Shown: positions 7,601-43,600 of the stretch, one piece after another
How the letters are laid out: every line of letters begins with the position of its first letter
Numbering within the stretch: position 1 is the stretch's first letter
Assembly: GCA_029582155.1 (NCBI GenBank)
Contig: CM055898.1
Location: forward strand, 26,853,245 to 26,917,244
Origin: Panopea generosa
Taxonomy: Eukaryota > Mollusca > Bivalvia > Adapedonta > Hiatellidae
DNA length: 64,000 bases
Direction: 5' to 3'
Notes under the pieces: model-generated
Told to the model about the DNA's origin: nothing
Databases searched by the model: none
Seen by the model: only the letters and a program-made list of their open reading frames with translations
Made by a program: the position numbers and the translations under genes

Positions 7601-10600
7601 AACAACCGAGTCATAACGGAATATTAAAAATGTAAACACTAGTTAAAAGTTTAACCCCAACTTTTAAGAAAAAGATATTATTATTTTTCTCTCTTTTTTA
7701 AAAACATTCACTATTGAGTCTATAGGAATGGCTTTAGCAACACTATAAACAACATGGCGTTGTATATAATGGCTTCAAACGCATTATGCGTGTAAGAAAA
7801 GTACAAATGAATTAAAGGTTGCTTTCAAAAGACATGCACGACATACACCGTCTAGGCGAAAGACGTTAACAGTTACAATTGTCGAAAATGTGAAACTTGT
7901 CACAAAATCAGAACAAAAATGATTACATTTTAAAATTGAATTTAAAAGGTGGGGAAGGTCATAGATTGTGACACATTAGATGCGTGAAAACACGTTTGCA
8001 ACTACCATTGTTGGTCAATGATGTTAAATATGAATAGATTGTTAGATTTTTTACTATGATTCTTTACAAATTTGCACCGGTTTCGTCATGTTATGTCGTC
8101 CGAACTTGAACATTTGGTCATCTATATTTTAACGATATCATATTTGATAATGGTTACGGTATTGCCGTTCAATTGGCTATGTATTCATTTCATTTTTAGT
8201 CAAATGTGATTGTTTTTTTAGCATGTAGAAACTCTGTAATAAATATTGTGATAATTTCTTTTTCTGCGTAAACGCAAAGGAAATAATTCAACAGACTGAT
8301 ATATTTGACTTTTCAATTTCCCTCTTTTTTATTCTATTGAGATTCGTAAACGACGCTATACAAAGTAATGGCACTTGACATTTCATTTTTGTTTGCGAAA
8401 ATGTGAGCATGTTGTAGATAGCAGAATAAATTAAATTCATTGCTCATATATTTTAAAGACATTAATACTAGATTTGATTACATGCTTTTTTGCAATTTAA
8501 GAGAACAAAAAAAAATGGTTCTCTTTCAAAAACCACTCGAACAACTGTTATAAAAATGTGAAAGTGATTTAAATGATATACTAGAAATATGTTTACTGAC
8601 ACGGGCTCCTCCGTTAACGATATAAATAAACCATAAAGGTGCATACAGCAATTAAAATAGAAACAGAATGTACACAAAATTAAAATTTGACCCATAAATA
8701 ATATATATATATACAATATAAATATAGAAAATTAACATTAATTAAAATTAACTTCTGCAATATTTATATACAAATACTTCACTTGTTTAGAAGCTGTTTT
8801 ATAGAAAAAATGTGCTTGTAAAATTATGTTAATAAAACAAAACTATAAAAGAAATAGTAATTATTTGGAAATACATGGACAACAAATACAATCTGCATGC
8901 CCCTGACTTTACCTTTCGTAGCATCCATAATCACTGATAAAGTGTTACGTGTAAATGACGTTGATTTCAGATGACATTGATGGGCATTTACCTTAACCTC
9001 ATTCAAATCAATATTCAAATGTTTCTACTTTATGTATCAACATCGAGGGTTGAATGCGAAAAAGATCTAAGGGCATATAAATAAAAAAGCACTTAGACTT
9101 TTTTCACTTTCATTCCTCGAACTGCACTATTATTAACGAGTGAGATGATTTTTCTATTCCATTTAGTTTAATATCAACTCTAAACTGCAGAAACCAAAGT
9201 TATGGGCGAGAGTGCAGTTTTATTCATCCGATTTTTCTCAAGTTATCACACAATTGTTATAACAATAATAAGTGGTTATTAATCTTACATCTGTGTCAAT
9301 TGTAACAAGCTTTGTATAAAGGTCAGTTTCATAGTTTTAGCTCAAATACTAAACATATTGTTTAAACTTATGTATTTTTCCTCGATTTGGAAACAAGTTA
9401 TTACACAATAGGCACATGTGGTCTTCCTGATTCGAACCAGATAAAGTGTCTTGCCCAATGACACCGCACATGGCCAGGGTAAGAATTGAACCCTCGACCT
9501 CCGATCCTGGCTCCGAAGCGCCATCATTTGATCATGTGTTCCACTATAAATAAATACTTATGTTTCCGATAAAATAAAAAACAAGCATTAACTATTATAC
9601 ACCAGAGGGAATTATAAATCTTCCTTTTTATTAACTTTCCAGCGTGTGAACAGCTTGCAATGAACACGATAGCATCATTTGGTCCTTTGAATCAGGACTT
9701 AGCTGCCTTTGTAGGGTCTGCGTGTTCGAGTCTCCACGTTCCCCATCTAGAGACTAGGATAGACGCCAGCAGCATTCCACTTTCCAAATATTCCATCAAT
9801 ATTCACCCTGATGCTGAACAGCTCTCCAAGGCTTGCCTTGATGTCATCAAACATTTCGGCTGGACCGAGATGCTCATTATATATGGTAATCAATTAGGTA
9901 AGCCAATTTAGTAGCTAACATTCATTGATTTGTTTGATTTATTGTATTTATTAACTTAGTTTACGTGTCTAAAACCAAATTGACACGATCTCAGATTTAC
10001 CAGTTTAAGCACAAAAAATCCGTATTTGTGACGTGTAAGCGGTATTCCCTATCAATAACAATGGTCTCCTTTCGTTATTGTTTGTACTGTATTTTGATAT
10101 TTGACCAGTTTGTTCATAATGTAGCAAAATGACCAAGGGCCGACAACTCACAAGGGTAGAATACGAGCATACTCAAATAAAATTTACAATTTACAATTTT
10201 ATTTTTACATGAATAAAATTACGATTATACAATTATACAATATATGCAAATTAAAGCTAATAACTTGTCAGCAAAAAAATACAGCTGGTTTAAAATGTCT
10301 TAAGATGGAATTAACACTTTCTTAATCACAAGTTTTTTCTCCTACACGTTCCGTATATCTATATCGCGATCCAAACTGCTTACATCATATGAATGTTATA
10401 AATGTTATTAATAAACACAAATATTGTATTCAAGATACTACTACCACGTCCGGATTATCGTAGATTTAGCGTCAATTATTCCTCGTGGCGATGTCTATAT
10501 CAACAGGGTTATCTTCCCCAGAACTCTGTACTGAGTTATCTGGCTTTATGTCGCTTCGTACCGACTATCGTCGACTGTACTCCGACGCCAGGATCGTCAA

Positions 10601-13600: not shown

Positions 13601-16600
13601 ATTTTAAAAACAACGCTGACGATTCCAGCATTACTGGAGGTTTTGTCTTAATGTGACTCCAGATATTTCTTTACATTTAGGAGAATCTATCTGTCGGACA
13701 TAGCTTTAATCAGACTAATATGAATGTTGCAATTAAAAAACATACATTTTGAACAAGAGAAGCTAAATACATTACTGAATATAGGCTAATGTAAACATTT
13801 AGATGCACTGATAGCAGAACTAATTGGAGTATGGTGTGACAATTACGATTTGAAAATCTTTGCTACAAAGGAGTGAGAAAAGTGGGAAAAACACTTTCAA
13901 TAATAATACAGTAGACAATATGGAATCCACGACATTTACCAAGTCTCAGTAAAAATTAACAATGGCATTTAAAATCAGAGAATATTAATCCTGAAGTCGT
14001 GCATTACCAGAGATCCAAATGCTCAGGTACCTCCTTCAACAAAGTTTGGAGGTTTATTATTATTTTATGACGTTTAGTAATTGATTGTTTTGAAAAGACA
14101 GCCTGTGCATTTGAACCATTGAATGGTGCATCCCTACTATCCCAACAACGATGCTACAGTCTTAAAAGTCCTTTAAAGTGCATGGTTAATGTAGTTGTCA
14201 TGCAGCTGTACATAATTATTCTGAAAATAATCATCTGTCTGATTCTGAACGATGGACACTTCCTGTCTGTAGTGGTGGAATGAATAAAATATGCTTATGT
14301 CGTCCATTGGTTAAAATGTTCTGGTATTTAGGGGATACCGAATGTATCCATAGGGTTAAAATCTAATATGGTTTATGAAAAAGACTGACAAAAAGCAATG
14401 AGAGGACAACGCATTGCCATATATGTAATACCTAGGGCATTACTGATAGAAAAAGACAGCCAGTACAATCTGATGGGCCTTAGACAAATCCCAAACCGGT
14501 ATTTAGTTTAAACTTATTTGTTTTACTTCAACTGTGAAACAAATTCTTACAACTTAGACAAATCATGCTCGACGTCTTCCTGGATATAGTCATTACTAAG
14601 CATATGTACAAAAGGTGTCTTGCTCAAGGACATCACACGCAGCCGTGGCGGTGGATCAAGCCAACAATCCTCTGAATTAAGAATTGTTCGAGCACCATAC
14701 GATACATGCGCATGTATTCAAATCGAAATTGAAATTAAGCCGGTACCAGATAGGTGGTTCGAGCTATATGCTTCGTTCCAGACATCTGTTTTCGAGCCAA
14801 CGAAGTTGTACTGTATATAAAACAGCATTATAATGTCCCCTTGTAATGAAACCCTTTTCTCTCGTAAATGAGTTTGCAAATTTATAATTTAGAAAAATAA
14901 AGAAATAAATGGTAACGAATTAGAACCATAAATATTGAAAATCATTATATATTTACCATTTACTTGTATACCAAGTAATTATTTATCGTTATTGCTTCCG
15001 CATTTACTTCATCATAATGCAAAGATCTTCATCCTTTTTATTTTAAAGAGCCTGGCGCGATAAGCTAAGTCAGTTACGCGTTTAACTATCACTCAAGCGG
15101 TTTGAATCCCCGTCCGGCAACAGTCTCCGTAATGATTTCTATACGTCTCTCACCGTTGATTGAAGTGGGAAGTTATCAGTTACTTGCGGAGATGGGGTGT
15201 GCTCGATTACTGGTTAGTGGTTAACAATAAGGATCCCAGGAAACAGTGGTTATATGAACTGATCGTCTGTTAGCCCTCGATGGCAAATAAATAACGCTAA
15301 ATACGCAATCAATTTATTTTAAAAAAAGCCATTCCATTTTCCATAAATGATGACTGATTTTATTTGAATGTGTTCAATAAATATAACAAAGTGCATATTG
15401 ATACCCATGTGCATTCATGATATAAGTTATTATAATATACGTATAAACGTGTCCCCATTGACAGATGCAGTTCAGTTTATGTATTGTTTGATTACCTGCA
15501 TTACGTATTAAACCTTTTAGTTTAATGCATGTTGGCAATATGCTGACCGTAACTCTCATTTAATGGGGATATTACTGGTTTTAGTTCTCTTCTAAAGAAA
15601 CATAATCTTAACGATAATAAATGTTGCTTAAGAAGGCGGTAGCATTGTCTGGGGATGCGTCATTTGTTTGTGTTAGATATTTGCCAATATTTTTTGTATC
15701 ATTTTGTTGCAGCTTTATTACAGGTGCAATCTTTATTTCGGACATGTGATGAACGGGGGAGTAATGAAACGGTTTCCATGATAGTTATAGTACGACAGGC
15801 TGATCTTTACCGTTTTTGTTGTAGGGTTCTTAAAGGTGAAATCATTACTTCGGGCAAGTAAAGAAACGGTACCCATGATGGTTATAGTACGACAGGCTGA
15901 TCTTTAACATATTGTTGTAGGATTCTTACAGGTGATATCATTACTTTTGCAAGTTATGAAACGGTACCCATGATGGTTATAGTACGACAGGCTGATCTTT
16001 AACATATTGTTGTAGGGTTCTAAAAGGTGCAATCATTACTTTGGGCAAGTAATAAAACAGTACCCATGACGGTTATAGTACGACAGGCTGATCTTTACCG
16101 TTTTGTGTAAGGTTCTTAAAGGTGCAATTCTTACTTCCGGCAAATTGAAACGGTACCCATGATGGTTATAGTACGACAGGCTGATCTTTACCATATTGTT
16201 GTAGGGTTCTAAAAGATACAATCAATACTTCGGGTATGTAATGAAACGGCACCCATGATGGTTTTGGTACGACAGGCTGATCTTTACCATATTGTTGTAG
16301 GGTTCTAAAAGATGCAATCAATACTTCGGGTATGTAATGAAACGGTACCCATGATGGTTTTAGTACGACAGGCTGATCTTTACCGTTTTGTGAAGTGCTC
16401 CTAAAGGTGCAATTCTTACTTCGGGCAAATTGAAACGGTACCAATGATGGTTATAGTACGATAGGCTAAAATTTACCATATTGTTGTAAGGTTCTTCAAG
16501 GTGCAATCATAACTTTCGGCAAGTAATGAAACGGTACCATTGATGATTATAGTACGACAGGCTGATCTTTACCTGTTTGTGAAGTGGTCTTAAAGGTGCA

Positions 16601-19600
16601 ATTCTTACTTCGGGCAAATTGAAACGGCACCCATTATGGTTATAGTACGACAGGCTGATCTTTACCATACTGTTGTAGGGTTCTAAAAGGTGCAATCATT
16701 ACTTTCGGCAAGTAATGAAACGGTACCCATGATTGTTATAGTACGACAGGCTGATCTTTACCATACTGTTGTAGGGTTCTTAAAGGTGTAATCATTACTT
16801 TGGGTAAGTAATGAAACGGTACCCATGATTGTTATAGTACGACAGGCTGATCTTTACCATACTGTTGTAGGGTTCTTAAAGGTGTAATCATTACTTTGGG
16901 TAAGTAATGAAACGGTACCCATGATAGTTATAGTACGACAGGCTGATCGTTACCATATTGTTGTAGGGTTCTTAAAGGTGCAGTCATTACTTTAGGCAAG
17001 TAATGAAACTGTACCCATGATGGTTTTAATACGACAGGCTGATCTTTACCATATTGTTATAGGGCTCTAAGAGGTGCAATCATTACTTCGGACAAGTAAT
17101 GAAACGGTGTCCATAATTGTTATAGAATGAAAGACTGATCTTTACCATATTGTTGTAGGGTTCTTAAAGGTGGAATCATTACTTTGGTCAATTAATGAAA
17201 CGATACCCATGATGGTAATAGTACGATAGGCTGATCTTTACCATATTGTTGTAAGGTTCTTAAAGGTGCAATCATTACTTTAGGCAAGTAATGAAACTGT
17301 ACCCATGATGGTTATAATACGCAAGCTGATCTTCACCATATTGTTGTAGAGTTCTAAAAGGTGCAATCATTACTTTGTGCAAGTAAAGAAACGGTATCCA
17401 TGATGGTTACAGTACGGCAGGCTGATCTTTACCGTTTTGTGTAGTGTTCTTAAAGGTGCAATTCTTACTTCGGGCAAATTGAAACTGTACCCATGATGGT
17501 TATAGTATGACAGGCTGATCTTAACCGTATTGTTGTAGGGTTCCTAAAGGTGAAATCATTACTTTGGGCAAGTAATGAAACGGTACCCATGATGATTATA
17601 GTACGACAGGCTGATCTTTATCGTTTTGTGTAGTGTTCTTAAAGGTGCAATTCTTACTTCGGGCAAATTGAAACTGTACCCATGATGGTTATAGTACGAC
17701 AAGCTGATCTTCACCATATTGTTGTAGGGTTCTTAAAGGTGCAAACATTACTTAGGGCAAGTAATGAAACGGTACCCATGATGGTAATAGTACGACAGGC
17801 TGATATTTACCATATTGTTGTAGGGTTCTTAAAGGTGCAATTCTTACTTCGGGCAAATAATAAAACTGTACCCATGATGGTTATAGTACGACAGACTGAT
17901 TTTTACCATATTGTTGTAGGTTTCTTAAAGGTGCAATCATTACTTTCGGCAAGTAATTAAACGGTACCCATGATTGTTATAGAACGACAGGCTGATCTTT
18001 ACCATATTGTTGTAAGGTTCTTAAAGGTGCAATCATTACTTTGGGCAAGTAAATTAGCGGTACCCATGATGGTTATAGTACGATAGGCTTATCTTTACCA
18101 TATTGTTTTAGGGTTCTTAAAGGTGCAATCATTACTTCGGGCAAGTAATGAAACGGCATCCATGATGGTTATAGTACGACACGCTGATCTTTACCATATT
18201 GTTGTAGGGTTCTTAAAGGTGCAATCATTATTTCGGGCAAGTAATGAAACGGCATCCATGATGGTTATAGTACGACAGGCTTATCTTTACCATATTGTTG
18301 TAGGGTTCTTAAAGGTGTAATCATTACTTCGGGCAAGTAATGGAATGGAATCTCTGACGTTTATATTACGTTTGGCTGATTTTCACAACTTGTAGGCCGT
18401 TGGTTAGATATTTATAAACATTTTTCTATACATTTCATGTTGCAGGTTTATTAAAGGTGCAATCATTACTTCGGGCAAGTAATGAAACGGCATCCATGAC
18501 GGTTATAGTGCGACAGGCTGATCTTCACAACATGCGGGCCGTGTTGAAGGAAGCCAAGAAAAAACGTTGGCACCACATTGTGGCCGAATTGAACTTAACT
18601 GAGACTGCTCTCCTTCTCAAAATGGTAAATCGTTTGGATTAACATACCTATTTTTAAATCAAATAGCTAGACATGTAGATAAAAAACTATAATTGAAAGT
18701 GTATTTTCTTTTCTGATATACTTATTTGTAACATGACAAAATGATCAAGCAGCTCCATAACCAGCCCTCATAGCATGCACATCTAACTCTGTATTTAAAT
18801 AATTTATCATCAATCTATGTCACTTCCATAGTTAAATGCATTCATTTGAGTTATATAATAGTTTAGTATGGTAGTTGCAAGTATATTATATATAGTTTAT
18901 TATATGTGTATTTACGTGTGTGATTAATGCAATATCAAAATTTTATATAAGTTAATTTATGTGTACTTACGTGTGTGATTAATGCAATATCAAATCATAT
19001 ATAGTTTATTATATTTGTATATTTGTGTTTAATAATGCAATATCAAAATTATATATCAATTTTAATATGTTAATATATGTGTGTGATTAATGCAATATCA
19101 AAATTATATATGTTTTAATATATGTGTATATATGTGTGTGATTAATGCAATATCAAAATTATATATTGTTTATTATATGTGTATATATGTGAGTGATTAA
19201 TGCAATATTAATATTATATATCTTTTATTATATGTGTATATGTGTGTGTGATTAATGCAATTTCAAAATTATATTTAGTTTATTATATGTGTATATATGT
19301 GTGTGATTAATGCAATTTCAGAATTATATTTAGTTTATTATATGTGTATATATGTGTGTGTGATTAATGCAATATCAAAATTATATTTAGTTTATTATAT
19401 GTGTATATATGTGTGTAATTGATGCAATATTAAAATTAAATATATTTTATTATATGTGTATATATGTGTGTGATTAATGCAATATCAAAATTATATTTAG
19501 TTTATTATATATGTATATATGTGTGTGATTATTGCAATATCAAAATTAACAGCCCATTCCAAAAGGAATATAAGTTAACTTCACTCATTAAAAAAAGCAA

Positions 19601-22600
19601 GATGTAGGCTTTATTTGATGTGGACATTAACGTTTTGTTTAATGAGCTGGTTGGACTTGGTAACTATATCAAACCAGTTTAAACACACACTTACACATAT
19701 GATATATTCTGTTGCTATCGTTGTCACGGACTCATAAAAATCGAGTATAATGTAGCATATTTTTACAAAACGTGAGTCAGTTTAAACAGTATGTCTTAGT
19801 CAATATTTAATTTAACTCATAGAGCCTAAATTGATTTTATATTCAATGAACGCTTACCCGTGAATGGATGTTATTATTATAGTTTTAGATAGTGTTACTG
19901 ACCTATCACGACAGATTAGAATTGATATGGTTCCTGTTTATATCTCTTTCTACTGATACTGCAACACTCTCTCATGAGGATTATGTGCACGCATAAAGTG
20001 CAAAATGTCAATTATACGGGCATTTGAATAACTGATTAGCACAGAAATTCAGTGAGATTTATTATAACTTTCCCTGTACACTGGACCGATTGCTTTAAAT
20101 CCCATCGGAAGGATTTGCATGTTTTCACAGCGCCTTGCACTGTGGTTATGCGTTTGAAAACCCTGAAACACCAACAGGAATCGTGCAACGTGCTGACCAC
20201 TTTACCGCCGCAACTGCTGTTTCCACTGACGCACTTCATTTTAACTACAAGAGATGCAAGAACAAAGAATAGGCATGTCTATGACTGCTGCATTTATCTG
20301 CTCAAATATACAGAATACAGCAAATAAGTATTCTGTATAGGGTTCTGGATTTTTGATAAATACTATCTCGTGTTGGTATAGACTGGTGTATTAATAATAT
20401 ATATTATAATATAAGTAATAAGATTCATCTGTTTAACGGTCATGATGTATTTACTTACACGTGCAAAACGCATTTTACATGAACCCACTTCTGGGTTCAC
20501 TTACTTTGCACGTGATTCCTGCAAATTCATGTCAGATTAGCATAAAGGACTTGTAAATAAAGTATACTAAATTGTTATTTGGTCCATTAGTAATGCAAGG
20601 AAAATTCAAGGTTGATATGACTTATTTTTTATATTTTCAGGCACTCCAGGAAGGTATGATTGACTCATATCATCATTTCATCATCAATAACATGGTATGT
20701 ATTTATATATTTTCGGTGCAATAAATCACTGCTAAACTATGATATTTAGAGATGATCATAACAATTATGCAATAAAATTCAATATTCCCTGGATTCGCAA
20801 AGCGGATATCAAACTAACTCCATGTACCAATGAATATTACTATAAGCCAATTACATCGACTCCATGCATAAATCACTTTTATCATATTATATTATACAAT
20901 CAATTATGTAGAATATTTCGATAAAGTCATTCTACCACATTTACAAGCGCACCAAGCTTTAGTAATTATATAAGACATAGCAAAAACAGTTTCTCCGGTC
21001 TATAAATTTTGTGTTTTGTTACTTTTGCATTCAGATTTATAACTAGTCGTTTGCGATTAGCTTTATCTTATTTCAATTTCAAATTCAATACATTATGGCT
21101 GGTACATGAGTGCATTTGACCTAAATTTGTGTAAAGAAAGAAATTCATCTCTTTCATTTTTCTCATATAAATCGTTATTTGATAATACGCTTCTGCTGGT
21201 TTGGAAGTGCACATCGATATATATTTTCATGTGAAAAACAAATTCACATAAATATCAGCCAAGATGATGTCAGTTTAGCTTTGATACGGTTGTTATTTAA
21301 TCTTACTCTAACTATTTTTTGATTTTTTATTGATGTTCCCGTTTCTTTTATCAATATTTATACATTTTTCCGAGAAATCTTTCGAATAGCTAGTTGACCT
21401 GACAAAGGTTGTGAATCAGCAGTGTTTGCTTGTCTGTAGAACGAACCCTGCTCTCCCAGTTTTGTCCGTTAACTAGCAATTATAATGGTTACGAACACGC
21501 TGATTGGTCAGTTGCTTCAGGGAAAATATGAATGACGTCATAGTTTAGTAAGCGTTCAATTGCTATGAATTGTTGGACAGGCATAGCATTCCCTGCTTTT
21601 TCCTTTGGTGGTTGATAGACCTGATTCCGGAGATATCAGGTTCTGGGATATACTTAGTGTTTGTACATTGATTTGCATGTTATGAGGCAACCTTGGTGAC
21701 ACCGCAGCCCTTAGTGTATAAAAATAAATTTTGTTACACTTAGGGTTACGGTTGCGACCCTTAGTGTTACATTAAGCGTATGTTTGGTACATGTATTTGC
21801 ATTTGATTATAAAACGGGTTCTCTTAGTGTAACAATCTGTTTTCTACTAGAAATGTGTTTATCCCTGCTATAAAACGTTACCCATGTTCGTCCGTCTACA
21901 CACTTTGTCTACACAAAACGGTTTTGTTACACTTAGGGTTTTTGTTACACTAAGAATTGCCACAATGCTATTGTAAAACTCGTATTGCACAAGTTATGCA
22001 TGTTAATTCATACTTTTGCGTTGCTAAATCGTAAGCTGCTTATGAAACTGGTTGTAAACTGTTAATAAAAGTCAATCTCAAGTACATCATTTCTAGCCCA
22101 CAACCAAATACAAGGTTAGCAATGGTATTAAACACATGCATGCCTGTCACATGCAAAATAAATACATTATCAGAGGGGTTTATTCTTATGTTCGGCACAC
22201 TTTATTACATGTATATTGTTACTAAATCCATACTGTAATCAAATCAAAACTATTCAAAATAATTATTTTATTTCAATAATAGACATCACACTTGATCATA
22301 GTGTAAACTTAGTTGAAATCCAATATAAATTCACGCTTAAATATCGCACATATGCTCCCGATATACAGTAGAACTTCGAACGCGAATGACTGGACCACCA
22401 CATAGAGTTCGAACCACTTACCTGGCCTCTGGCCGAATTCCTGTTTCGATGTATATACTTGTTCATGTATGGTGTGATGTTGAACAATACTTGGCTCGAA
22501 CAACCCTTAATTCGAACTATTTTGTCCAGTCTCGTCGCGTTCGAGCCATCGAAGTTCTACTGTAAATGAAATACAATGAAAAATATTTCGTCTAAAAATT

Positions 22601-25600
22601 AGAATAACAAGAATTAAATTTATTTTTCATGAATTCATTCATGTGTTAATATTGACGAATTACGGACACCTTTGAATTCATTCGATGTGTGGATGATCGT
22701 TGGAACTTCACAGTGTTAACTGCTGGAAAATATAATGTAATCTTAAAATAGAAAATATTTTTATAATTCACTTTCAATACAACTATCATTTTGTTCCATT
22801 TGTTTACATATACTGAACGGAACAGCTAACCTGATGAAACATTTTATGTACCTGACATTTATGTAATTTCTGAATAAATATATCAAATCAATTTCCTTGA
22901 CAGTTATATTTGAATAAAAAAGATATTTAGGCTATGTAAAATTAATGCATATTGTCTGTTTGTGTCGTATAGACATTTTGATAGCGATGCTCGATAGTTT
23001 GACGAAGATATTTAAAAAACAAAAGGGGCGGGATAGCTGTTCCGTTCAATATTGTTATTATATACTGAAATGGATCCCTTAGAAGCACGGACGCACACAA
23101 GTATTGCAATACTCGGTTTTAATGAATCTGTTTATGGCGAGTGATGAAACATGCAGTTATCCTTACAGAGTTTATATTCTGTATTCCCAGGACATCGAAC
23201 TATTAGATCTAGAAGATTATCGTCACAACTTTGTAAATCTAACTGGCTTTAGATTAGTTAACGTAGAAGACGAATACGTGAGGTCAATTCTTTATGACAT
23301 CGACTTATATAAGGAAAACACTCAACTACATATATTAAAGGGTACCACGTTACCGGTAAGTAAGAACTTTTCAGAGCCTATTCTCTTTAAAACTCCATAT
23401 TGGATATATAATATCTTCTTATTATAAAACGTTTTTGTAATTAAATGCTTTTAAATGTTAACGTATATCCATTATAATGCTTGTTCTTAAAAAGAATAAC
23501 AAAATATGATCTTAATTCAATAGCTATGAAAATGTATTATAGTAGATATACAACAATATACGAGTGCATGAGGCAAATGAAATAAATTATTAAAGCAGGT
23601 ATGTAACAATATACAAGTACGAGTATATGAGGGAAATTTAATAATGTATTATAGCAGTTATATAACAATATACGAGTATATCATGAAATCCAATAATGTA
23701 TTATAGCAGGTATGTAACAATATATGAGTATATGAAGAAATGCAATAATGTATTGCAGCAGGAATGTAACAATATACGAGTATATGATGAAATGCAATAA
23801 TGTATTGCAGCAGGTATGTAACAATATACGAGTATATAATGAAATGCTATAATGTATTGCAACAGGTCTGTAACAATATACTAGAATATGATGAAATGAA
23901 ATAATGTATTATAGCACTTATGTAATAATATACGAGTTTATGATGAAATGCAATAATGTATTGCAACAGATATGTTACAATATACGAGTATTTGATGAAA
24001 TACATTTATGTATTGCAGCAGGTATGTAACAATATACGAGTATATAGGGAAAAGCAATAATGTTTTGTAGCAGGTATGTAACAATATTTGATTATATGAT
24101 AAAATGCAATAATGTATTACAGCAGGTTTGTAACACTATACGAGTGTATGATGAAATGCAATAATATATTGCAGCAGATATGTAACAATATACGAGTATA
24201 TGATGAAATGCAATAATAAGTTATAGCAGTTATGTAACAATATACGAGTATATGATGAAATGCAATAATATATTGCAGCAGGCATGTAACACAATACGAG
24301 CATATAAGGGCAAGTCAATAATGTATTAAAGCAGGTATTTAACAATATACGAGTATATGATGGAAATGCAATAATGTATTATAGCAGTTATGTAACAATA
24401 TATGAGTATATGAAGAAATGCAAAAATGTATTGCAACAGAAAAGTAACAATATACGAGTATATAATGAAATGCAATAATGTATTGCAACAGATATGTAAC
24501 AATATACGAGTAGTTGATGAAATGCAATTATGTATTGCAGAAGGTATGTAACAATATACAAGTATATGATGAAAATGCAAAAATGCATTGTAGTAGGTAT
24601 GTAACAATATACGAGTATATGTGGGCAATTCAATAATGTATTAAAGCTGGTATGTAACAATATACGAGTATATGGTGGTAATGCAATTATGTATTGTAGC
24701 AAGTATGTAACAATATACGAGTATATGAGGGAAAGCAATAATGTATTGTAGCAGATAAGTAACAATATTTGAGTATATGATGAAATACAATTATGTATTG
24801 CAGCAGGTTTGTAAAAATAAACGAGTGTATGATGAAATGCAATAATGTATTGCAGCAGGTATGTAACAATATACGAGTATATGATGAAATGCAATAATAA
24901 ATTTAAGAAGTTATGTAACAATATACGAGTATAATTATGATGAAATACAATAATATATTGCAGCAAGTATGTAACAATATACGATTTATAAAGGAAAGTC
25001 AATAATGTATTGCATCAGGTATGTAACGGTATACGAATATATGATGGAAATGCAATAATGTATTATAGCAGTTATATAACAATATATGAGTATATGATGA
25101 AATGCAATAATGTATGGCAGCAGGTATGTAACAATGCACGAATATATGAGAAAAATTCAATAATGTATTAAATCAAGTATGTAACAATATACTAGTAAAT
25201 GATGAAGATGCAAGAATGTATTGTAGCAGGTATGTAACAATATACGAGTATATGTTGAAATGCAATAATGTATTGCAGCAGATATGTATCAATATACGAG
25301 TATATAATGAAATGCAAATATGAATTATAACAGTTATGTCACAATATACGAATATATGATGAAATGCAATAATGAATTGCAGCAGGTATGTAACAATAAA
25401 CGAGTACATGATGATATGCAATAATGTATTGCAGCAGGCATATAACAATATACGAATATATGAAGAAATGCAATAATCTATTGTAGCAGGTATGTTACAA
25501 TATACGAATATATGAGAAAAGTTAAATAATGTATTGCATCAGGTATGTAACTATATACGAGCATATGATGAAATGCAATAATGTATTGCAGCAGGTATGT

Positions 25601-28600
25601 AACAATATACGAGTATATGATGAAATGCAATAATGCATTGCAGCAGGTATGTAACGATATACGAATATATGCGGAACATTTTATCATGTATTAAAGCAGG
25701 TATGTAACAATATACAAGTATATGATGGGAATGCAGTAATGTATTGTAGCAGGTGTGTTACAATATACGAGTATATAAGGGGAAAGTTTTATACAAATAT
25801 ATACATATATATGATTACATATATGTGGGAATATACGAATATATGTGGGAATTTCTATCATGTATTAAAGCAGGTATGTAACAATATACGAGTATATTGT
25901 GGGAATGCAATAATGTATTGTAGCAGGTGTGTTACAATATACGAGAATATGAGGGAAAGTTTTATACAAATATATACATGTATATGATGACATATCAATT
26001 ACACGTATCTGGATTAAGTTCGCATTCAGTTACGTTTATATGTATGTGTTATGTCAATTTTTTTACAAGCGTCTTCTCTATTCGCTCATGGTATTGTGAT
26101 TTATTTTTCTAATATCAAATACGTATGTAAAGCTCCATCAGATGGCTAGTTTCATTTTGACATCTGGGATAGTCAGAGATAAACATGTGATATGTTGTAG
26201 AACATTTATATATGTATTAGTTGATGTTATTGCTTTCACCAAGGACTAATATAAGGTAGGAAAAGCAACTGATTGAGATGTTATGAACGCTCGTGTATGC
26301 ACGCAAAGTCTCGCCAAATCTCATTTTCAAATAACCTAACTTCGATTCATCTCAGAAATACAAATTAAAGTTATTTCATCTGAACAATGTAGTTCTTTAC
26401 GAAACGAGAGTTTTCCCCAATCAAATTGTGTTTTGAATTGTTGAAGTGCTTATGATTACAATATTTGGAAAATGCAACTTAAAATATAGGGAAGGTATTT
26501 AAAACTTTACTTCAAACTGCAATATTTTAAATACATGTTTTTGGGTTTTTTTAAAACTAGAAAAAAAAACATCTTTAGTTATATAACCTTACATTTTATG
26601 CAAAAGAAATCAGTTTACTGTGAAATTTACATGATTACTTTGCCAAATTGTAAATATTTCGCATGCTATATTATAAACATTTAGTAAAGCGATGCAAGTT
26701 TCCTATCCTTCTATATAAGTCCTTGCTTTCACTGGCTACTACATTTCATAACAAACATGAATATATTATATTTGTTGAATTAAAAAAAATAACTTACCTA
26801 CCATAATATACTAAAACCAATATGAGATAAATACTATAAAACACAAAACGTAGTTACTTAAAGAAACCACGAGTTATATTTTCCAAATCAGTTTAATAAA
26901 CATGTTAATTATAGTCCTTTGCCTTAAAGGTAGTGTATCTAAGTGCCTTATCATATATAAAACTGTTTTTTATATGAATAAAGGACATTTTATTATTATG
27001 AATACATAAACTCCCAACTCCAGTTTGGTATATCAAGTCCATCAAAACATGATACGTTTATAAATAATGGACAAAATAATAATCATCTCATTAATACTTT
27101 TCTTGCCAAATACATTTTATACCATTATAATGTTACCTGCCATTTACCCTTCAATCTAAAGGTCACCCCTTTGTCATGACAACTGCCAAATAAACTTTTT
27201 CATGACCTTCATCGCATTTTTATATCTGAGTAATGAAATTTAGTTATAAAGGTTATTCCTTTATCATGTTACATGCCAAATAAACTTTTTATCATTTGCC
27301 AAATAAACTGTATTATAACGGAGGAGCCTCCGTGGCCGAGAGGTCTAAGGCGCCGTCTCAAGATCACTTACCTCTCACAGCCAAGGTCGTAGTGTCGAGT
27401 CCTGCTCGCTCCAAAAACTTTATGTGAGGAAGTTTGCCAGTTACTTGCGGAAGGACGTAGGTTCTACTCAGTCTGAGGTTTACCTTCACCAGTAAAACTG
27501 GATATGCCATATATAACCTGAACTGTGTTGAAAATCATAACGGTTATCCCATTAATATACCTGACTAATACACTTTGATTATAAAGGTAATTCCTTTATC
27601 ATGCATGTCACCTGCTAAATAAACTTTGACCACAAACGTCCTCACGTATATACTTTGTAATGAGTCATATTTTTGAAATGTTACTTGCCACATAAACTTT
27701 AGCTACAAACGTTATCACTTATATAATTTGTCAGAAGAATCATATTTTTGTAATGTTACCTGCCCAATAAACGTTTGTCACAAAATTTATCTCTTTACTG
27801 TGTCTCCTGTCAAATTATTATCTTACTTGCCTAATAAACTTTAGTTATAAAGACACTACCTTTATGATGGTACTTGCATGAACTTAAAACACAAAAAGCA
27901 TCCTTTTGTCATGTTTACATTAGTGTTGTTGTGGTGACCATTGAGGTAACATGTCTACGAGCATTGCACAAATAAAATCACTTTTATCATAAAAATTGTG
28001 ATTGATGCATTAATGGGACCACGGCAATTATTTTCCAGTATCAGTGTGCCCTCATATTTGACGCCGTGTACCTTTTCACCAAGGCGCTGATGGATTTGAA
28101 TCGCAGTAACTTGTTTATTACTCCAAATAACACGTGTGAAGACGCCATCCCTTGGGCAGGAGGAAAGTTATTGTATGATTATATAAATGGGGTAAGTAAC
28201 AATTTTAAAGAAAAAGTCTAATTTGAATTGCAATAAAAATGTGAAATATTAAAATAAAAAAAAACTACTTTCATTGAGCGGTTTTCTATTAAAAATTAAC
28301 TCTTTTGAAACTGTTTTAGTGTTTAACCTCATTTGACAACCGATTTAATTGCTTCAATTGTCACTCTTATTTGTTTAAACAGCCTACAAAATAACTTTTA
28401 AGTTCGTTCTTAATCATTAAGAAGTTTGGCATCACTGCACATGCGTGATGAGCACTGCACAAACTCCGCTCTTGATATTCAAGTCTGAACGAGGCATGTA
28501 CAATCTACGCGCGAGCTATGCTTAGAAACGGCTTCAGCAAACATCAACTTTAAAAATTCACTCACCTCAGCTTTCATCGTAGCTTCCGCCCTGAGTCTAT

Positions 28601-34600: not shown

Positions 34601-37600
34601 ATAGTTCATCCAACACATATTTATTACATACAAATGATATTGTACATGATATGTTTAAATAGTTTAAAAGTTTAATAAATATAAAATGGATAAACAAATG
34701 TTCAGCTTTCAATTTGATATATAGAAAATTCAATCAACGGTCATTTTAAGTTAACCCAGACAAAATTTCTAAACTGATTTTTTATTTATATATATATTGC
34801 TGCAAAACAAATTTCATCAAAAGTTCATCGTAACTGAACAATAGGAAATTTATTTTTATACCACATAATTAAAAAAAGTTTTGACACTAAGTGTATATAA
34901 TACCTCTCGTACTAAACCAGCAACACATTTTGAAAACCAAATGTATTGGAGAATGAATGTCGTGAACAATCTTTGATAACCATACCACTTGTCTGGTAAG
35001 ACACTTTATTTAAACCACATATCAGACCTTTGTGAATTTGATATATTTGTTGTTGTTTTTTTCAGACTGGAATCTGGAAGGTAGGGTCGGGTGCAAACAT
35101 AACTGTTCAACGATTCATGGGTTCGGGTGTGTTTGGAAACAAAACACTGATAGTGTCCACAAATTTGGTACGTATCTGACCTACAAAACATTTTCATTCA
35201 CAATATGCATTAAACAGGTACGTAAGAGTAACGTTCATATAAGTAAACTGTTTTATAGATTTGTTAAGATAGGTCACGTGAGTGTTTGTGTTTATTTTGT
35301 CATATATTTGTAACGGTGAAAAACTGTAATAGTTTAGGTCAAACCAATATATCTACCCAACTATAAAATGTGTTAATATTATTTATAGGAGCTACGTAAT
35401 CAAATGAAATGTTTGTCATACTTTAATATAACTAGTATCATTTTAAAGGGATGAAAAAGCAAATGCAGCAAAGATTCGGATTTTATAAACGATGTTGAGA
35501 TTGATACAGATTGTATAAACATATAGGAGATAAAAAAATAATTTATAAACGATACGGAGATAGGTACTTATTTTATAAACAAATGGGAGATAGATACAGA
35601 TTTTATAAACGATTGACAGATAGACACATATTTTTGAAACGATTGGGAGATAGATACATATTTTATAAACGAATGAATGAAGTACATATCTGACATGATT
35701 CAAGTGTATAAGCCTAGTAGAAAATTAAGATCTCAAAATTCACTTACTTTAGTCAATCCAAGGTCTCACACTATGTATGGACAAAGAAGCTTCATATGTG
35801 CCGTGCCTACCCTATGGAATGCTTTACCCAGCAGCATTCGGGAAACTACGACATTGTCTTCTTTTAAGAAACATTTAAAAACATTTTTTTTCGTTCAGAA
35901 TTATACCGACTAAATTTTACTGAATTTCAATGTTTCTTTAAATAACGCACAGCTATATCTATATTTAAACATGAACAGTATTATTTTATCTGTGTTAATA
36001 GGTAACAAAATGTCGAGCCGAGTTTACAGCATGCATTACTCTTATTTGCCATTTTTTTATACTAATGCCTGTATTTGTTTATTCAGCTTGTCTTTTAAGA
36101 TTGTTATGTTTTTTATTTAATATTTTGTATGTATGCTATTTGTTAATGTAAAGCATTTTTAAACGCATTTATTTATGATAAGAATGCTATATAAATGTGG
36201 TATATAATAATAATAATATCCGTCATGTAAGTGTCGTGTCCAAATGGACACCATAGAACAAATGCACATGTAGACTAATGTAAACAGCCAAATACAATAT
36301 TGTGCATGTGTAAAAACGTGGTGCTTTCTGTCGTTTCCTTCCCATACAAAACTTAGGACTGTTCGACATGTGTAAGAAAGTTCTTTATGAATGCTTCATT
36401 TTATCGGTAATTTTATTTCTTAGCAATATTTATCATTTTCCTAAATGTTAAACATATATTGTAAGATAACATATGTTCCAAATAGCCGTACTTTTATAGG
36501 CAGAGCATAATTGTTTAATATACTAATACATTTTATTTCCACTTTTTATTAGGAACCACCATACGCTATGCTAAAGGATGAAATCAAAGGACATCCGTTG
36601 AAAGGAAACGACCGTTATCAAGGATTTTGTATAGACTTGTTAAGTGAACTTGCACGAATAGTTGGTTTTGAATACACGATAGCTCCAGTACCGGATAAAA
36701 GGTATGGGGAGCTTAACAAGGACGGTCATTGGGACGGAGTTGTCAGGCAGTTGATCGATAGAGTACGTATAACATTGTTTGATAGGATTTATTTTTGTGT
36801 CATGTAATATAGTTTATTCCGTAAGACCTGTGCATATATATATAGTTATGTATATATTTGAAACTGTTATACTAAGCCATGTGACAACATTTTATAATGT
36901 TTTTTTTCATATAATGGAAATATACTAATATATATCTATGTTCTATTAAATGTATGTATTGTATGATGATGTATTCATGTGAAAATCAATAAAAAATATG
37001 TTCTGTGTTACCATTTACGTTTGAATCGCATTTCATCATCGACATATGCTTTGTTCACGATTTGAGTGCAAAAATAAACATAACACTAGAAAACTGCAAC
37101 GTTTTAATATCATATGCCGGCTGTAATGACTCATTAAAACGGTATAAAAGCCAAATAAGCAAAGATAATAGATATGTGCTTGTTTATTTACACTTATAGT
37201 GTTTACAATCTAAAAAAATCAGACTAAATATTATTAAATTAATTCACATAAATTCTGTAAGCAAATATAAATCTCATCGTTTAAAGAAATATCTTTTTTT
37301 TAAATTTTAAGCACACCATACTACATCAAATAATATACAAAATGTAGGTCTATTATTTCGCAATATTTTCTTCTATTCTACTGAACATTTTGTGTTGACG
37401 TCAGCGAGGGTCTTTAAATTTTTTACTCGGTATATTTATTCGATAAAGTTTTTTTATATAATTTGCCACACATGATTTCAAGACATATTTCATGTTAACG
37501 AGTTTCGTGCATTTATTTCGTAAATCTATGCTTCAAAGATTTCCCATAAACTGGAATTTGTCTGAACGTTGGTTTTATGTTCTTTCGTTTTACCAGTCAT

Positions 37601-40600
37601 TTCTTAAATTATGTTTTGTGGGCTTGCAATATATTACGAACTTTTATAGGTTTATTAATAACGATTCCCTGAAATCATTTGTCAACGTTTCAAGGCGACA
37701 TTACATTTCATAAAGAGCAATCATTTGAAAGTTAGAACAATTCCGAAATCAAACACCATCAGCAAGCCTGGAAACAGAACATGATTCGAAAATCGCCCAC
37801 CCCAATTTTGGAATAAGTATTGGTCGTTTTTTTGCAGAAGATTATTTGTCGTTTTTGTGCACAATTTTAGAAGCATCCACGAATACCACAAGTTCTTATA
37901 CACAACCAAAAGTTTAAATCTGTCCAATTTTGTGTGACAAACAGCGAAAAAAAAGGAAAATGTGTTAACAAAATATGCTATTCGATCTGCAAAGAGAATT
38001 TTAAAACCTGTTGGTGACTTCAATGATGTTTTCAAACTAATTCTTATTCTGTATATAAAGCCAAGTTCGTTGGATTTTTTGGATTTATCATGTCAACTTT
38101 TTTGAGTAGTTTAAGTAGTTTAAGATGTATCCCCGCCTGCTGATAAACAATTAAACCGGTTTTTACTTATACGTATCATGGGTGGTATAATATTTGTTTT
38201 ACATTACTGAAGTTTGGCAGCAGCATAAAAAGAGCATAAAGCTTTCAAACTGAAGGAGACACAAGTGTTATTTGACAAAACTGATGTTAATGAACAATAT
38301 AAGTTACATGCAATTAAAGATGATATGCTTCAGGTGTGAAAATAATCATAACACATAAAAATTGAAACATCTGATTAGGCTAGTAAATATAATTGTTTTG
38401 CGTGTTACGAGAAGAGGAGTGTTCAGTAAATAGCGCAATGGGTTTGTTCCTAGAATGCTATAATCTGTTTTGATCATTTTTTGTGTGATTTTCTTCAATT
38501 TACTCCGTTTAACTGAAACACACATATGTGTTCGTATTCTTAAACAGATATAGCCTTAAAACATGGGTAAATATAGATCTTAGAGCATTTCGCGATTTAT
38601 ATATTTGTCCAGGCGAGTGTTTTGTAGTCTTCGGAAGAGAAAATAATCACAGGGCACCAGTCTGGAAAATATGGGATGTGTGGGAGAACGGTGACATTCT
38701 CTAACTGCAAAACGTCAGTCACAACACGGGTTTTGTAGGCTGACGCGTTGTCATGTAAAAGATTAATAAAATTTAAACCTATTATAGGGCAACGCTGTTC
38801 GTAGTAGTTATTCTATTGTTTCAACATGACGTTTTTTATAAAACAAAAAAAAACACGTCCTGTAGCAATTCCTCCATTTAATTTTTTAATCTTTTTTTCA
38901 ATAAGGCGACAAGTCTCTCATCCAAGCTAAGCCTCTTACTGTGTATCGAGCATGAATCTATAGTCAGCTGTTATGATTTTAGTTTGTCGTTTGTCGTAAC
39001 AACCGTATGTGGTTACGGATATTTCGATGTTTCTTTGGTTGTTGACATAACATGACGACCGGGGCTAGCAGCATCTTTCAACTGCTGTTGCCCGGAGTAC
39101 AATATGATATTTGACCTTCACAGTAAATGCTATACACCTCTTAGTAAGTGTCTTTCGATGTAAACCCAAGTCATAACCTACTTTCAATGAAGGCCCTAAT
39201 TTCAAGCATACGTTCAGCTCGTTTGCCAGTAATTGTGCATACAGTGTAATGAATACGTTAAAAAGCCATGTGCATGGCACCAAGATCAGTTAATGCTTAA
39301 CGCAGATTTTTACATGCTACACGCACCACTTATCAAAAAAGTGATATCACATTGTTTCATTACTATATTACAGCAGATTTTGTAAGAAATATACAGTAAG
39401 CTCATTTTTAACGGAACACCACTCGTAATTTTATTCTTCACAAACCTGAAACTTTAAACCATAAATATATTAAACGGACACAATTTGAAATCAAATTGAC
39501 TAATGATTAGCATTAATTCAACATTTACGTTCACTACAAATGTATAGTTGTATACATACATTATACTTACACTACAAACGTATATCTGTTTATAATCATT
39601 GTACGTATACTACAAACGGATAACTATATACACACATTGTACATACACTGAAAATGTATAGCTGTTTATAAACATTGTACATACACTACAAACGTATAGC
39701 TATATACAAACATTGTACGTACACTACAAATGTATAGCTGTATACAAACACTGTACGTGCACTACAAACGTATAGCTGTATATAAACAGTGTACGTACAC
39801 TGCAAACGTATATATGTATACTCACATTGTACATACACTACAAACATATAGCTGTATACAAACATTGTACGAACACTACAAACGTATTACTGTACATAAA
39901 CATTGTACATACACTATAAAACATATAGCTGTATATATAGTTTAGTTAAGTTTAGTTTGAACATATTTTATTACTGTATATAAACATTTTACGTACACTA
40001 CAAACGTATAGATGTGTACAAACAGTGTACGTACACTACAAACGTATAGCTGTATACACATATTGTACGTACGCTACAAACGTGTAAACCTCGTTTGCTT
40101 ACCGAATAACGGTATCTGTATTTTTCAGGGGTTAATTTTTTCCTTTCTCAACCTAGCGCCGAGATTAAATTCCTGTGACGGTAGAAACATCTATGAAGTG
40201 ACGTAAATTATATAACTTGGCGTCTTAAACACGATCGAGATAAACAATACAACGATCGATTAAATCAATATAATAATACAACGTCTTTGGGATGTAATAC
40301 ATATATCTTTAACAATCGCTTATTAGGTTTGGATAGAAACGTTGTCCCTTAAGATAACTGGTAGCCAGTTCACGCCAAAAAGTTTTCCCTCGGGATGGAT
40401 TGTTTTTATCCTAGCCTGAAACACATGGAAATTTTCTTATACAATATGTAGAAGTGTATATTTACAATCTACAAAGAGTTGTTTTGGTTTGTTGCGTTAG
40501 CAACTCATCAGTGTTGTAAATGTTATAAATTTCAGAACTAATGTCGACTTAAAATGAATGCTTAAATCAAAGTTTTACTGTCAATTTCAGAAAGCTGATC

Positions 40601-43600
40601 TGGCGGTTGCCGCTCTCACAATAAGCTATGAAAGGGAACAATATATAGACTTCACAAAACCATTCCTAAATCTGGGCATAAGCATTCTCTTCAAAGTGCC
40701 AAGACGAGAAAAACCTGGATTATTTTCTTTTATGAATCCTCTGGCAATTGAAATATGGATATACGTTGTGGCTGCCTATTTCATTGTGAGTTTAACAATA
40801 TTCATATTAGCGCGTTTTAGTCCTTACGAGTGGTATAACCCCCATCCGTGTAACCCGGAAACAGACACTGTGGAGAACTCGTTCACATTGTCCAATAGTT
40901 TTTGGTTTTGTGTTGGAACGTTAATGCAACAAGGTTCAGATATAAACCCAAGGGCTGTGTCAACAAGAATTGTGGGAAGTACGTGGTGGTTGTTCACACT
41001 CATTATCATATCATCATACACAGCCAACTTGGCAGCTTTTTTGACTGTAGAGCGAATGGTGTCGCCAATTGAAAGTGCAGAGGATCTCGCAAAGCAAACA
41101 GACATATCATACGGAACCCTTGAGGGTGGTTCTACAATGTCATTTTTTCGCGTAAGTATAGCATTACAGAATTATAGAACTTCCGACATGTTTGAATGAT
41201 ACTATTTTAAAGATTTGATTATATTTTAGAAATTGATAATATGGTCGCTGATTCTGATGCTTTGTTTTCCGGTAATGACAAATGCGATAATAGTCACTGT
41301 CAGAAATCGATCCTGCAAATGGGAAGTGGTGGTGCAACGGTACTGAGTAAGTGACCGCCCACTACGTGACAGCACTGATGTCTCGGCATTAATCAGAAAT
41401 TCAGTAAAACAATTGACTTTCGTACAATGACATGAACACCTTTGAAATAGGACAAAATATTGATTTATTGTCAAGCATCCGTGAAATGGACATCCTACCC
41501 AGAAATGAGCTGTTTTATTATGTACTTAATCATTGAACTTGAATACGTATTATGATAGGTGTTCATACAACAATAAACGTCTCTCAAACTTCCATAATAT
41601 ATATAACTGTAAAATAGTTTTCAGACAGTTTGATGACAAATGTATTAAAATGAAGAGCTAAATATAATTTCCATTATAAAAGTGTGATTGTTTGTTATTT
41701 TCGTTTTCATACCAGGATTCAAGTATAGAAACGTATCAAAGAATGTGGAATTTTATGGAAAGCAAAGACCCCAGTCCGTTCACAAAGGACGCGCAAGAAG
41801 GGGTTGCTCGCGTCGTGGCGGGAGATTATGCATACTTGATGGAATCCACTTCCTTGGAATACATTACACAAAGAAATTGTAAACTAATGCAGATTGGTGG
41901 CCTTCTAGATTCTAAAGGATATGGTATAGCCACGCCGATGGGTACGTTTCTTAAAAATGTTCTGTCCAATTGTTATGCTATTTGTAGGATTTGTCTAGAC
42001 TGATATAATGAATATATGAAATTTAAATAGATAGCAGATTGCTTGACATAGATTTTATAGTGCAAACCCCATCGTGGCAAAGGGAAAGTACCATTTCAAT
42101 AGGAATTCAACTTGTTTATAAAAATTAGTCACTTCGATTCGCTTCGAGCATACGTATAAACAAGACAAATATATGATTTATAAAAATGCATAATACAATC
42201 TAAGAGTTTAAATCAAAATATACGTAAATATATATTTTCGAACGAGCAAACGAAGAACAGACGGACAAGCATGAACGAGCAAATAAAATTTTAATAAATG
42301 AAATGATAAAATGAAATGTTGAATACAAGAATGATTGACTGAATGAATGAATGAATGAATGAATGAATGAATGAATGAATGAATGAATGAATGAATGAAT
42401 GAATGAATGAATGAATATGAATTTTGAATCTTTTCTGATAATAGTGTACGTATGTAACTAACTGCTTTTTTTTCAAAATAAACACATATGGGTCATAATC
42501 AAGGCTCATAATCAAAAAATAAATTAATCTCATTAAAATCAGATCAACTTTAACTTCAATACTCAACGCACAGTAGATCTGACGGCCAAGCAAGGTCACC
42601 TCAGATTGACCTTTCCGCCAACCAATCAGAGACTTGTTTTAAAGATTTTGAAAGTGATTATTTATACAACATATGACGATCACTATCGCCGAATTCAGTT
42701 GTTCCGGTTTAATACTGGTTTTAAAATTACCCAAAGCATCTATCAACGCAATACACATCTCAAAAAATCAAAATCTCATACACATACATGTATTATTGAT
42801 GTTGTTGTTGTCAGAGTTTATCAAATAGTACTAAATTAAGAGTATTAATTTTTTTCAAAATATTCTGGAATATGGGATATTTTGTAAATATGAGAGCGCC
42901 AACCAAATAGTATCGAATTGGGCGAAATGGGTTGTGCTTTCTTCTTATTTCTGGTTATTTCTTGTTATTTATTTTGACGGCTTTATTATAAAACTGTTTT
43001 TTTTTTTCATTTATTAAACAGATTCGCCGTTAAAAGACAAATTATCCATGGCTGTCTTAAATTTGCAAGAAGATGGGAAAATCCAAATGTTATATAACAA
43101 ATGGTGGAAAAGTTCATCACAATGTGTGAAAGACGAAAAATCTGATTCCAAAGCAAACGCCTTGGGTGTGGAAAATGTTGGGGGTATTTTTGTAGTGCTT
43201 CTTGGAGGACTTACTGTGGCGATTCTAGTTGCACTGCTCGAGTTTGTCTGGAATTCCAAGACAAATGCAACGACGGACAAGGTGTGTTTCCATATATCGA
43301 TTTTTTATAAAATCTGTTAGTAATTTTTATTTAAGGATTAAAAGCTGAGTTTTGAATATTCATCATCAGGTAATGTAAAACATAAGACCAGTTTATTGTT
43401 CGTGAAGCCTGAAGGGCTTCTCGGCAACACCAAACTTGCCTTTTGTTTTTAACTACCCGATGGAAATTTTAAATTTGGCTTTTAATTCTTATATTAACAG
43501 TACATTTTCCAACTATTTTAGATAAAACTATTACGGTATTTTTGCCGTTTTGATATTTAAAAAGCAAATTAAATGCATTAAACCGCAATGCCAATGTCAT

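What the first reader, a model, noticed from the sequence alone, without database searches (positions are those of the whole stretch)
15690..18445. Half-exon satellite: ~28 tandem copies of a glutamate-receptor exon's acceptor and 5' half, upstream of the real exon
Seen: a 96-bp unit containing a TTG(T/C)AG acceptor and about 80 bases of exon-3-like coding sequence recurs about 28 times in the sense direction, ending at the functional exon 3. Copies lack the exon 3' half and its donor. Inference: the exon boundary itself was amplified into a minisatellite, creating a ladder of decoy 3' splice sites inside intron 2. They could titrate spliceosome components, slow splicing, or yield isoforms with a lengthened amino-terminal domain. 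I know of no described case in a kainate receptor gene.
Basis: partly seen in the sequence, partly recalled or inferred. Interest (0 to 1): 0.85.

Follow-up and report, generated by a model that had tools for sequence, protein, structure and literature searches.

The report
Half-exon copies repeated before an exon
In a glutamate-receptor gene of an unnamed animal, the start of one exon and its splice signal are copied about 28 times in a row just upstream; this looks like a long case of a little-known kind of repeat described in lancelets, probably harmless, but it makes splicing accuracy easy to test.

Summary
Window 15713-18398 carries 28 head-to-tail copies (mostly 94-96 bp) of the acceptor and first 80 nt of a 179-nt kainate-receptor exon (E3, 18446-18624); 24 of 28 keep the AG. 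Both ends keep traces of an inferred first duplication of about 143 bp (intron tail plus exon nt 1 to about 100); the 96-bp unit came later. The assembly holds a second version of the gene about 1.08 Mb away, inside a long tandem duplication that is either two haplotypes joined head to tail or a real duplication. Its array has 21 units in the same order, lacking a block. E3 is identical in both (179 of 179), while 18 matched unit pairs differ by 2.6%. The units show no coding constraint, and extending E3 to any unit acceptor leaves no open frame (0 of 28, 0 of 21). Best reading: a non-coding intron/exon-boundary minisatellite of the 'mirage' kind known from lancelet genes, where authors report undisturbed splicing. 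It is a new member of a known kind, with more units than the counts I saw in print (6 and 3; a triplication), and probably not in a lancelet. Whether the decoy acceptors are ever used needs RNA, which was not available.

The parts
9643..9897 (+). E2, exon upstream of the array-bearing intron; ends with a codon split as G|GT
   Evidence: splice-site context; protein matches kainate receptor amino-terminal domain
15668..15712 (+). Left flank: likely relic of the intron tail of E3, ending TTGTTGCAG, aligning with 18399-18445
   Evidence: local alignment score 39, 0 of 1000 shuffles reach it; with the last 15-17 nt cut off the score is 27 and 1 of 1000 shuffles reaches it
15713..15824 (+). First copy: CAG acceptor and exon-like first codons, with an internal 16-nt gain
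15825..18303 (+). 26 core units of 94-96 bp (80 nt exon-like, about 16 nt intron-like with acceptor), mean pairwise identity 85.8%
18304..18398 (+). Last copy: its 3' part keeps exon homology to about exon nt 97, the other end of the inferred first duplication
18399..18445 (+). Present intron tail and working acceptor of E3 (CATTTCATGTTGCAG)
18446..18624 (+). E3, functional exon of the kainate-type receptor amino-terminal domain, 179 nt, donor GTAAAT; source of the units
   Evidence: identical in the second locus
16234..16239 (+). Donor-like GTATGT inside a unit (also at 16330)
16804..16809 (+). Donor-like GTAAGT inside a unit (also at 16900); with the unit acceptor it frames a 29-nt out-of-frame exon
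20641..20694 (+). E3b, next exon downstream (54 nt)
   Evidence: found with a motif pattern recalled from GluK2, bounded; in frame and identical in the second locus

Best explanation
This is a minisatellite grown from an intron/exon boundary. Step 1 (inferred from both array ends): a tandem duplication of about 143 bp copied the last 43 or so nt of the intron plus the first 100 or so nt of E3. Step 2 (inferred): a shorter 96-bp unit (80 nt exon-like plus a 16-nt acceptor piece) arose inside it and multiplied by slippage or unequal exchange. Step 3 (a length difference between two versions is shown; the mechanism is inferred): the array changes by blocks of units, 28 against 21. The copies are intronic, drift without coding constraint, and sit upstream of an intact E3. 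Splicing most likely passes over them to the true acceptor, with at most low-level cryptic use (inferred).
For: Unit-exon match. End copies keep older states on their outer sides: CAG plus exon-like first codons on the left, exon homology to about nt 97 on the right; flank alignment reached by 0 of 1000 shuffles. GTGTT at both inferred breakpoints, 15670-15674 and 18541-18545. No coding constraint in 26 core units: distinct variants for 13 of 55 possible synonymous, 53 of 168 non-synonymous and 6 of 11 stop-making changes; changed cells 69, 47 and 40 at codon positions 1, 2 and 3. Second locus: 21 units in the same order, window rows 13-18 plus one more absent; 45 of 1712 sites differ in 18 matched pairs, exonic and intronic parts alike (2.7% and 2.5%), against 0 of 179 in E3 and 8 of 2523 in the exons used (6 synonymous, 2 not). 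Acceptor A and G columns changed 0 and 4 times against a column mean of 2.1. Tandem repeats cover about 18% of the gene span. Published lancelet mirages: same anatomy, splicing reported undisturbed.
Against: 24 of 28 unit acceptors look usable: under a matrix from this gene's other 10 acceptors, 13 to 24 of 24 score at least as high as E3's own (four settings); under a generic recalled matrix only 2 of 24 do. Four units carry strong donor-like sites. Without RNA, undisturbed splicing is inferred. The two-step origin has no outgroup; the flank homology weakens when the acceptor end is cut off (1 of 1000 shuffles); a 5-nt GTGTT match can be chance, and the present junction reads GTTGGTT, not GTGTT. 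Units near the exon are not more exon-like overall (Spearman 0.12, p 0.56).
Confidence: 0.85

Rival explanations
1. The array is a working decoy or poison-exon ladder: some pre-mRNAs splice into a unit acceptor, gain a premature stop and decay, so array length sets receptor output.
For: 24 of 28 acceptors intact; unit acceptors score like real ones under this gene's own matrix; all 28 read-through products meet a stop (repeated with the mended gene model); strong donors in 4 units; length differs between versions. Precedent for length-dependent splicing by a boundary VNTR: ABCA7 (PMC5954066, passages).
Against: No selective retention seen at the AG columns; matched units diverge at least as fast as four intron pieces (2.6% against 0.8-2.0%); a generic matrix ranks most unit acceptors below E3's; lancelet mirages are reported not to disturb splicing.
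Confidence: 0.08
2. The units encode extra protein repeats giving receptors with a longer amino-terminal domain.
For: 96 bp is 32 codons, the codon split at the junction is kept (G|GG), and several single units are open. With weak donors a few cassettes are open: GCAAGT 1 of 119, loose GT set 10 of 180.
Against: Stops or frameshifts in many units; 0 of 28 and 0 of 21 read-through forms open; 0 of 29 and 0 of 19 cassettes with GTAAGT or GTATGT open; no sign of constraint at codon positions 1 and 2.
Confidence: 0.02
3. Assembly artefact: the array or its length is produced by misassembly.
For: The gene sits in a tandem duplication of about 1.1 Mb that may be two haplotypes joined head to tail, so parts of this assembly may be doubled.
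Against: The 26 core units average 85.8% identity and the closest pair is 93 of 96, so collapse or false expansion is unlikely; a second version shows the same units in the same order.
Confidence: 0.03

Closest known systems
[quoted passage not shown] its two haplotypes differ in unit number; many units keep splice signals (PMC3087553 section 16 read; PMC3902484 one passage).
   Different: 28 and 21 units of about 96 bp here, against 6 and 3 units of 150-160 bp in BflGb6 and a 3 x 108 bp triplication in PGBD5; the Adh3 and TnC unit numbers were not seen. The gene is a kainate receptor. A 1.47-Gb genome and a window near 32% GC do not fit lancelets as I recall them (about 0.5 Gb, 41% GC).
ABCA7 intron 18 VNTR (human)
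   Same: Tandem array that includes a splice site of a neighbouring exon (PMC5954066, passages).
   Different: 25-bp unit with a donor, not an acceptor plus half an exon; an effect of length on exon 19 skipping was measured there.
Interferon-induced 6-16 / G1P3 minisatellite
   Same: A minisatellite that supplies multiple splice sites (only the title of Cuin and Porter 1995 seen, in a reference list; the paper is not held).
   Different: Donor sites, not acceptors.
Internal tandem repeats at exon-intron boundaries of human duplicated genes
   Same: Repeats of minisatellite size at an exon-intron boundary, discussed as a source of new introns (PMC2812944, passages).
   Different: Average unit 30 bp repeated 4 times in recent human paralogues; many retained in exons.

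Membership tests
Mirage (intron/exon-boundary minisatellite) | Tandem units span an intron/exon boundary of the neighbouring functional exon | tested here: met
Mirage (intron/exon-boundary minisatellite) | Many but not all units keep splice signals | tested here: met
   24 of 28 keep AG here, 17 of 21 in the second locus
Mirage (intron/exon-boundary minisatellite) | Length instability | tested here: met
   28 against 21 units in two versions of the gene; whether alleles or paralogues is open
Mirage (intron/exon-boundary minisatellite) | Homogenised inner units, cluster ends left out | tested here: inconclusive
   end copies keep older outer parts and linked variants recur in inner units, but the first copy's match to the consensus (85 of 96) lies within the core range and identity does not fall with distance
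Mirage (intron/exon-boundary minisatellite) | Normal mRNA splicing is not disturbed | not testable with these tools
   no RNA held
Mirage (intron/exon-boundary minisatellite) | Host is a lancelet (all cases under this name that I saw) | tested here: inconclusive
Kainate-type ionotropic glutamate receptor gene | ANF_receptor, Lig_chan-Glu_bd and Lig_chan domains, best match among solved structures to GluK | tested here: met
   GluK2 best for the channel part, E 2e-182; a chain labelled Glutamate receptor (7ysv, 9e-42) and GluK1 (1e-41) best for the amino-terminal part
Tandem or mutually exclusive exon duplication | Copies are complete exons with acceptor and donor | tested here: not met
   units stop at about exon nt 83 and lack the exon's donor

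The most novel reading that the evidence does not exclude
The ladder of 24 intact acceptors, most scoring no lower than the true one under this gene's own matrix, is a length-tuned decoy: unit number sets how often E2 is spliced into a stop-containing unit and so how much kainate receptor is made, and the 28- and 21-unit versions differ in output.
Probability: 0.07. Interest if true: 0.75.

Novelty: new member of a known kind. Interest (0 to 1): 0.4.

Why it matters
Two natural versions (28 and 21 units) in front of an identical exon make a ready experiment on how a spliceosome finds the true acceptor among many near-copies. Such arrays are also a proposed source of new introns (PMC3087553).

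Tried and rejected
Coding reading of the units: rejected. First E4 start at 23083: rejected, because the second copy has a stop there and all five changes in that stretch alter the residue; E4 set to 23191 and E3b found, and the splicing tests repeated. A first cassette run placed GC donors two bases early and was redone. Acceptor strength gives opposite answers with two kinds of model (own-gene matrices against the generic part), so it is left open; the matrices still held the wrong E4 acceptor, which the generic model does not use. Identity of units to the exon shows no trend along the array (Spearman 0.12, p 0.56), although the last two core units are the most exon-like (0.94, 0.93). Exact search of the viral collection with a unit piece: 0 hits. 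Comparing the sampled pieces L023-L032 with each other gave no match over 500 bases. Paper searches with 0 hits; searches of which I saw only the listing: (6 papers; 8 papers), and apart from the two papers opened. Exons between E5 and E8 and before E1 were not located.

For the 18 matched unit pairs I left out, of the 21 second-locus units, the first copy, the last copy and unit 14 (which seems fused), and the window units with no partner. The tandem-repeat coverage uses TRF rows that I merged by hand.
Full report
WHAT WAS CLAIMED.

THE GENE. Exons on the + strand join in frame into a kainate-type receptor: E1 1471-1629, E2 9643-9897, E3 18446-18624, E3b 20641-20694, E4 23191-23355, E5 28039-28191, and a second group labelled E8 to E12 from 36553 to 48090; exons between the two groups were not located. 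Pfam finds ANF_receptor in the first part and Lig_chan and Lig_chan-Glu_bd in the second. Among solved structures the second part matches GluK2 best (E 2.1e-182); the first part matches a chain labelled only Glutamate receptor (7ysv, 9e-42) and GluK1 (1.1e-41) best. For the first part, searches used an earlier gene model with 36 extra residues at the start of E4 and without E3b; the extra stretch was dropped because the second gene copy has a stop there.

THE ARRAY. TRF gives 15760-18342, period 96, 27.1 copies. Wraparound alignment gives 28 unit starts, 15713 to 18304; 26 are core units of 94-96 bp with mean pairwise identity 85.8%. The first 80 nt of the consensus match E3 at 74 positions. 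Units end at about exon nt 80-83 and then carry a short acceptor piece, usually ending TTGTTGTAG. Of 28 acceptors, 24 keep AG.

ORIGIN. Both outer ends show older states. On the left, 15668-15712 aligns with the intron tail of E3 (score 39; 0 of 1000 shuffles reach it; with the acceptor end cut off, score 27 and 1 of 1000) and the first copy has CAG and exon-like first codons. On the right, the last copy keeps exon homology to about nt 97. GTGTT occurs at both inferred breakpoints, 15670-15674 and 18541-18545, but so short a match can be chance and the present junction reads GTTGGTT. I infer a first tandem duplication of about 143 bp, then a 96-bp unit that multiplied inside it. Linked variants that cross unit borders recur (an altered tail followed by a TC head, table rows 5-6, 8-9, 10-11, 19-20, 21-22), as expected from exchange of multi-unit blocks. 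Identity between units does not fall with distance, and there is no overall trend of exon likeness along the array.

A SECOND VERSION. The window lies at C5:26853245-26917244 of a 1.47-Gb assembly in 39 contigs, and the same gene and array recur about 1.08 Mb downstream on the same strand. Sampled points at 26.600, 27.050 and 27.500 Mb also have same-strand partners 1.08 to 1.12 Mb away, at 98%, 95% and 100% identity; the last also has an inverted partial copy at 95%. So the gene lies in a long tandem duplication: two haplotypes assembled head to tail, or a real segmental duplication. I could not decide; the requests for two more points did not complete. A search with the E3 protein found two full matches, these two genes, and six matches to units, among 36 candidates scored. 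In the second version E3 is identical over 179 nt, the 11 exons used differ at 8 of 2523 nt (6 synonymous, 2 not), and the array has 21 units in the same order, lacking window rows 13-18 (16775-17349) and one more. In 18 matched unit pairs 45 of 1712 sites differ (2.6%), alike in exon-derived and intron-derived parts and without a marked excess at codon position 3 (12 of 467, 10 of 481, 16 of 481 at positions 1, 2, 3); four intron pieces differ by 0.8% to 2.0%, the one next to the array by 2.0%. The exon is held while its copies drift.

CODING AND SPLICING CONSEQUENCES. In the 26 core units, distinct variants are seen for 13 of 55 possible synonymous, 53 of 168 non-synonymous and 6 of 11 stop-making changes. 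Splicing E2 to any unit and reading through into E3 gives an open frame in 0 of 28 cases here and 0 of 21 in the second locus. Cassette exons of 20-1000 nt from an intact unit acceptor are open in 0 of 29 and 0 of 19 cases with GTAAGT or GTATGT donors, in 1 of 119 and 0 of 77 with GCAAGT, and in 10 of 180 and 8 of 121 with a loose set of GT donors. Most unit use would therefore end in a premature stop. Acceptor strength is unresolved: with a matrix from this gene's other 10 acceptors, 13 to 24 of 24 intact unit acceptors score at least as high as E3 (four settings); with a generic recalled matrix 2 of 24 do. The A and G columns of the unit acceptor changed 0 and 4 times against a mean of 2.1 per column, which shows no selective retention.

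COMPARISON WITH THE KNOWN. [quoted passage not shown] the authors say that the Adh3 data and their RT-PCR suggest no interference with regular splicing (PMC3087553: passages and section 16). PGBD5, Adh and TnC of lancelets are further cases (PMC3902484, one passage). The ABCA7 intron 18 VNTR includes a donor site and its length correlates with exon 19 skipping (PMC5954066, passages). Tandem repeats at exon-intron boundaries of human paralogues are discussed as a source of introns (PMC2812944, passages).

VERDICT. Longer receptors by extension of E3 are excluded by sequence. The decoy effect is possible but unsupported. The kind of structure is known; this case has more units than the counts I saw in print, sits in a kainate receptor gene, and comes as two natural length versions. 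One text search found no paper joining minisatellite, kainate receptor and intron; that is one library of open-licence papers only.

Noticed in passing
23531-25776: A 52-bp minisatellite (42.8 copies) follows E4; 17 AGGTATGT motifs lie in it against 2 in the rest of the window, a pattern like repeated recursive-splice sites.
   Followed up: partly
1660-2129: A 30-bp minisatellite starts about 30 nt after the E1 donor; the BLASTN hits of E1 to it involve only the intron flank, not the exon.
   Followed up: partly
C5:26.378-28.150 Mb (mostly outside the window): A tandem duplication of about 1.1 Mb contains the gene; two pairs of receptor-like hits about 0.87 Mb apart on C15 hint at further doubled stretches in this assembly.
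   Followed up: partly
C5:26927-26932 kb, about 10-15 kb beyond the window end: Further glutamate-receptor-like matches on the opposite strand, also present in the second copy.
   Followed up: no
window 1471-48090: Tandem repeats cover about 18% of the gene span (15 merged TRF arrays).
   Followed up: no
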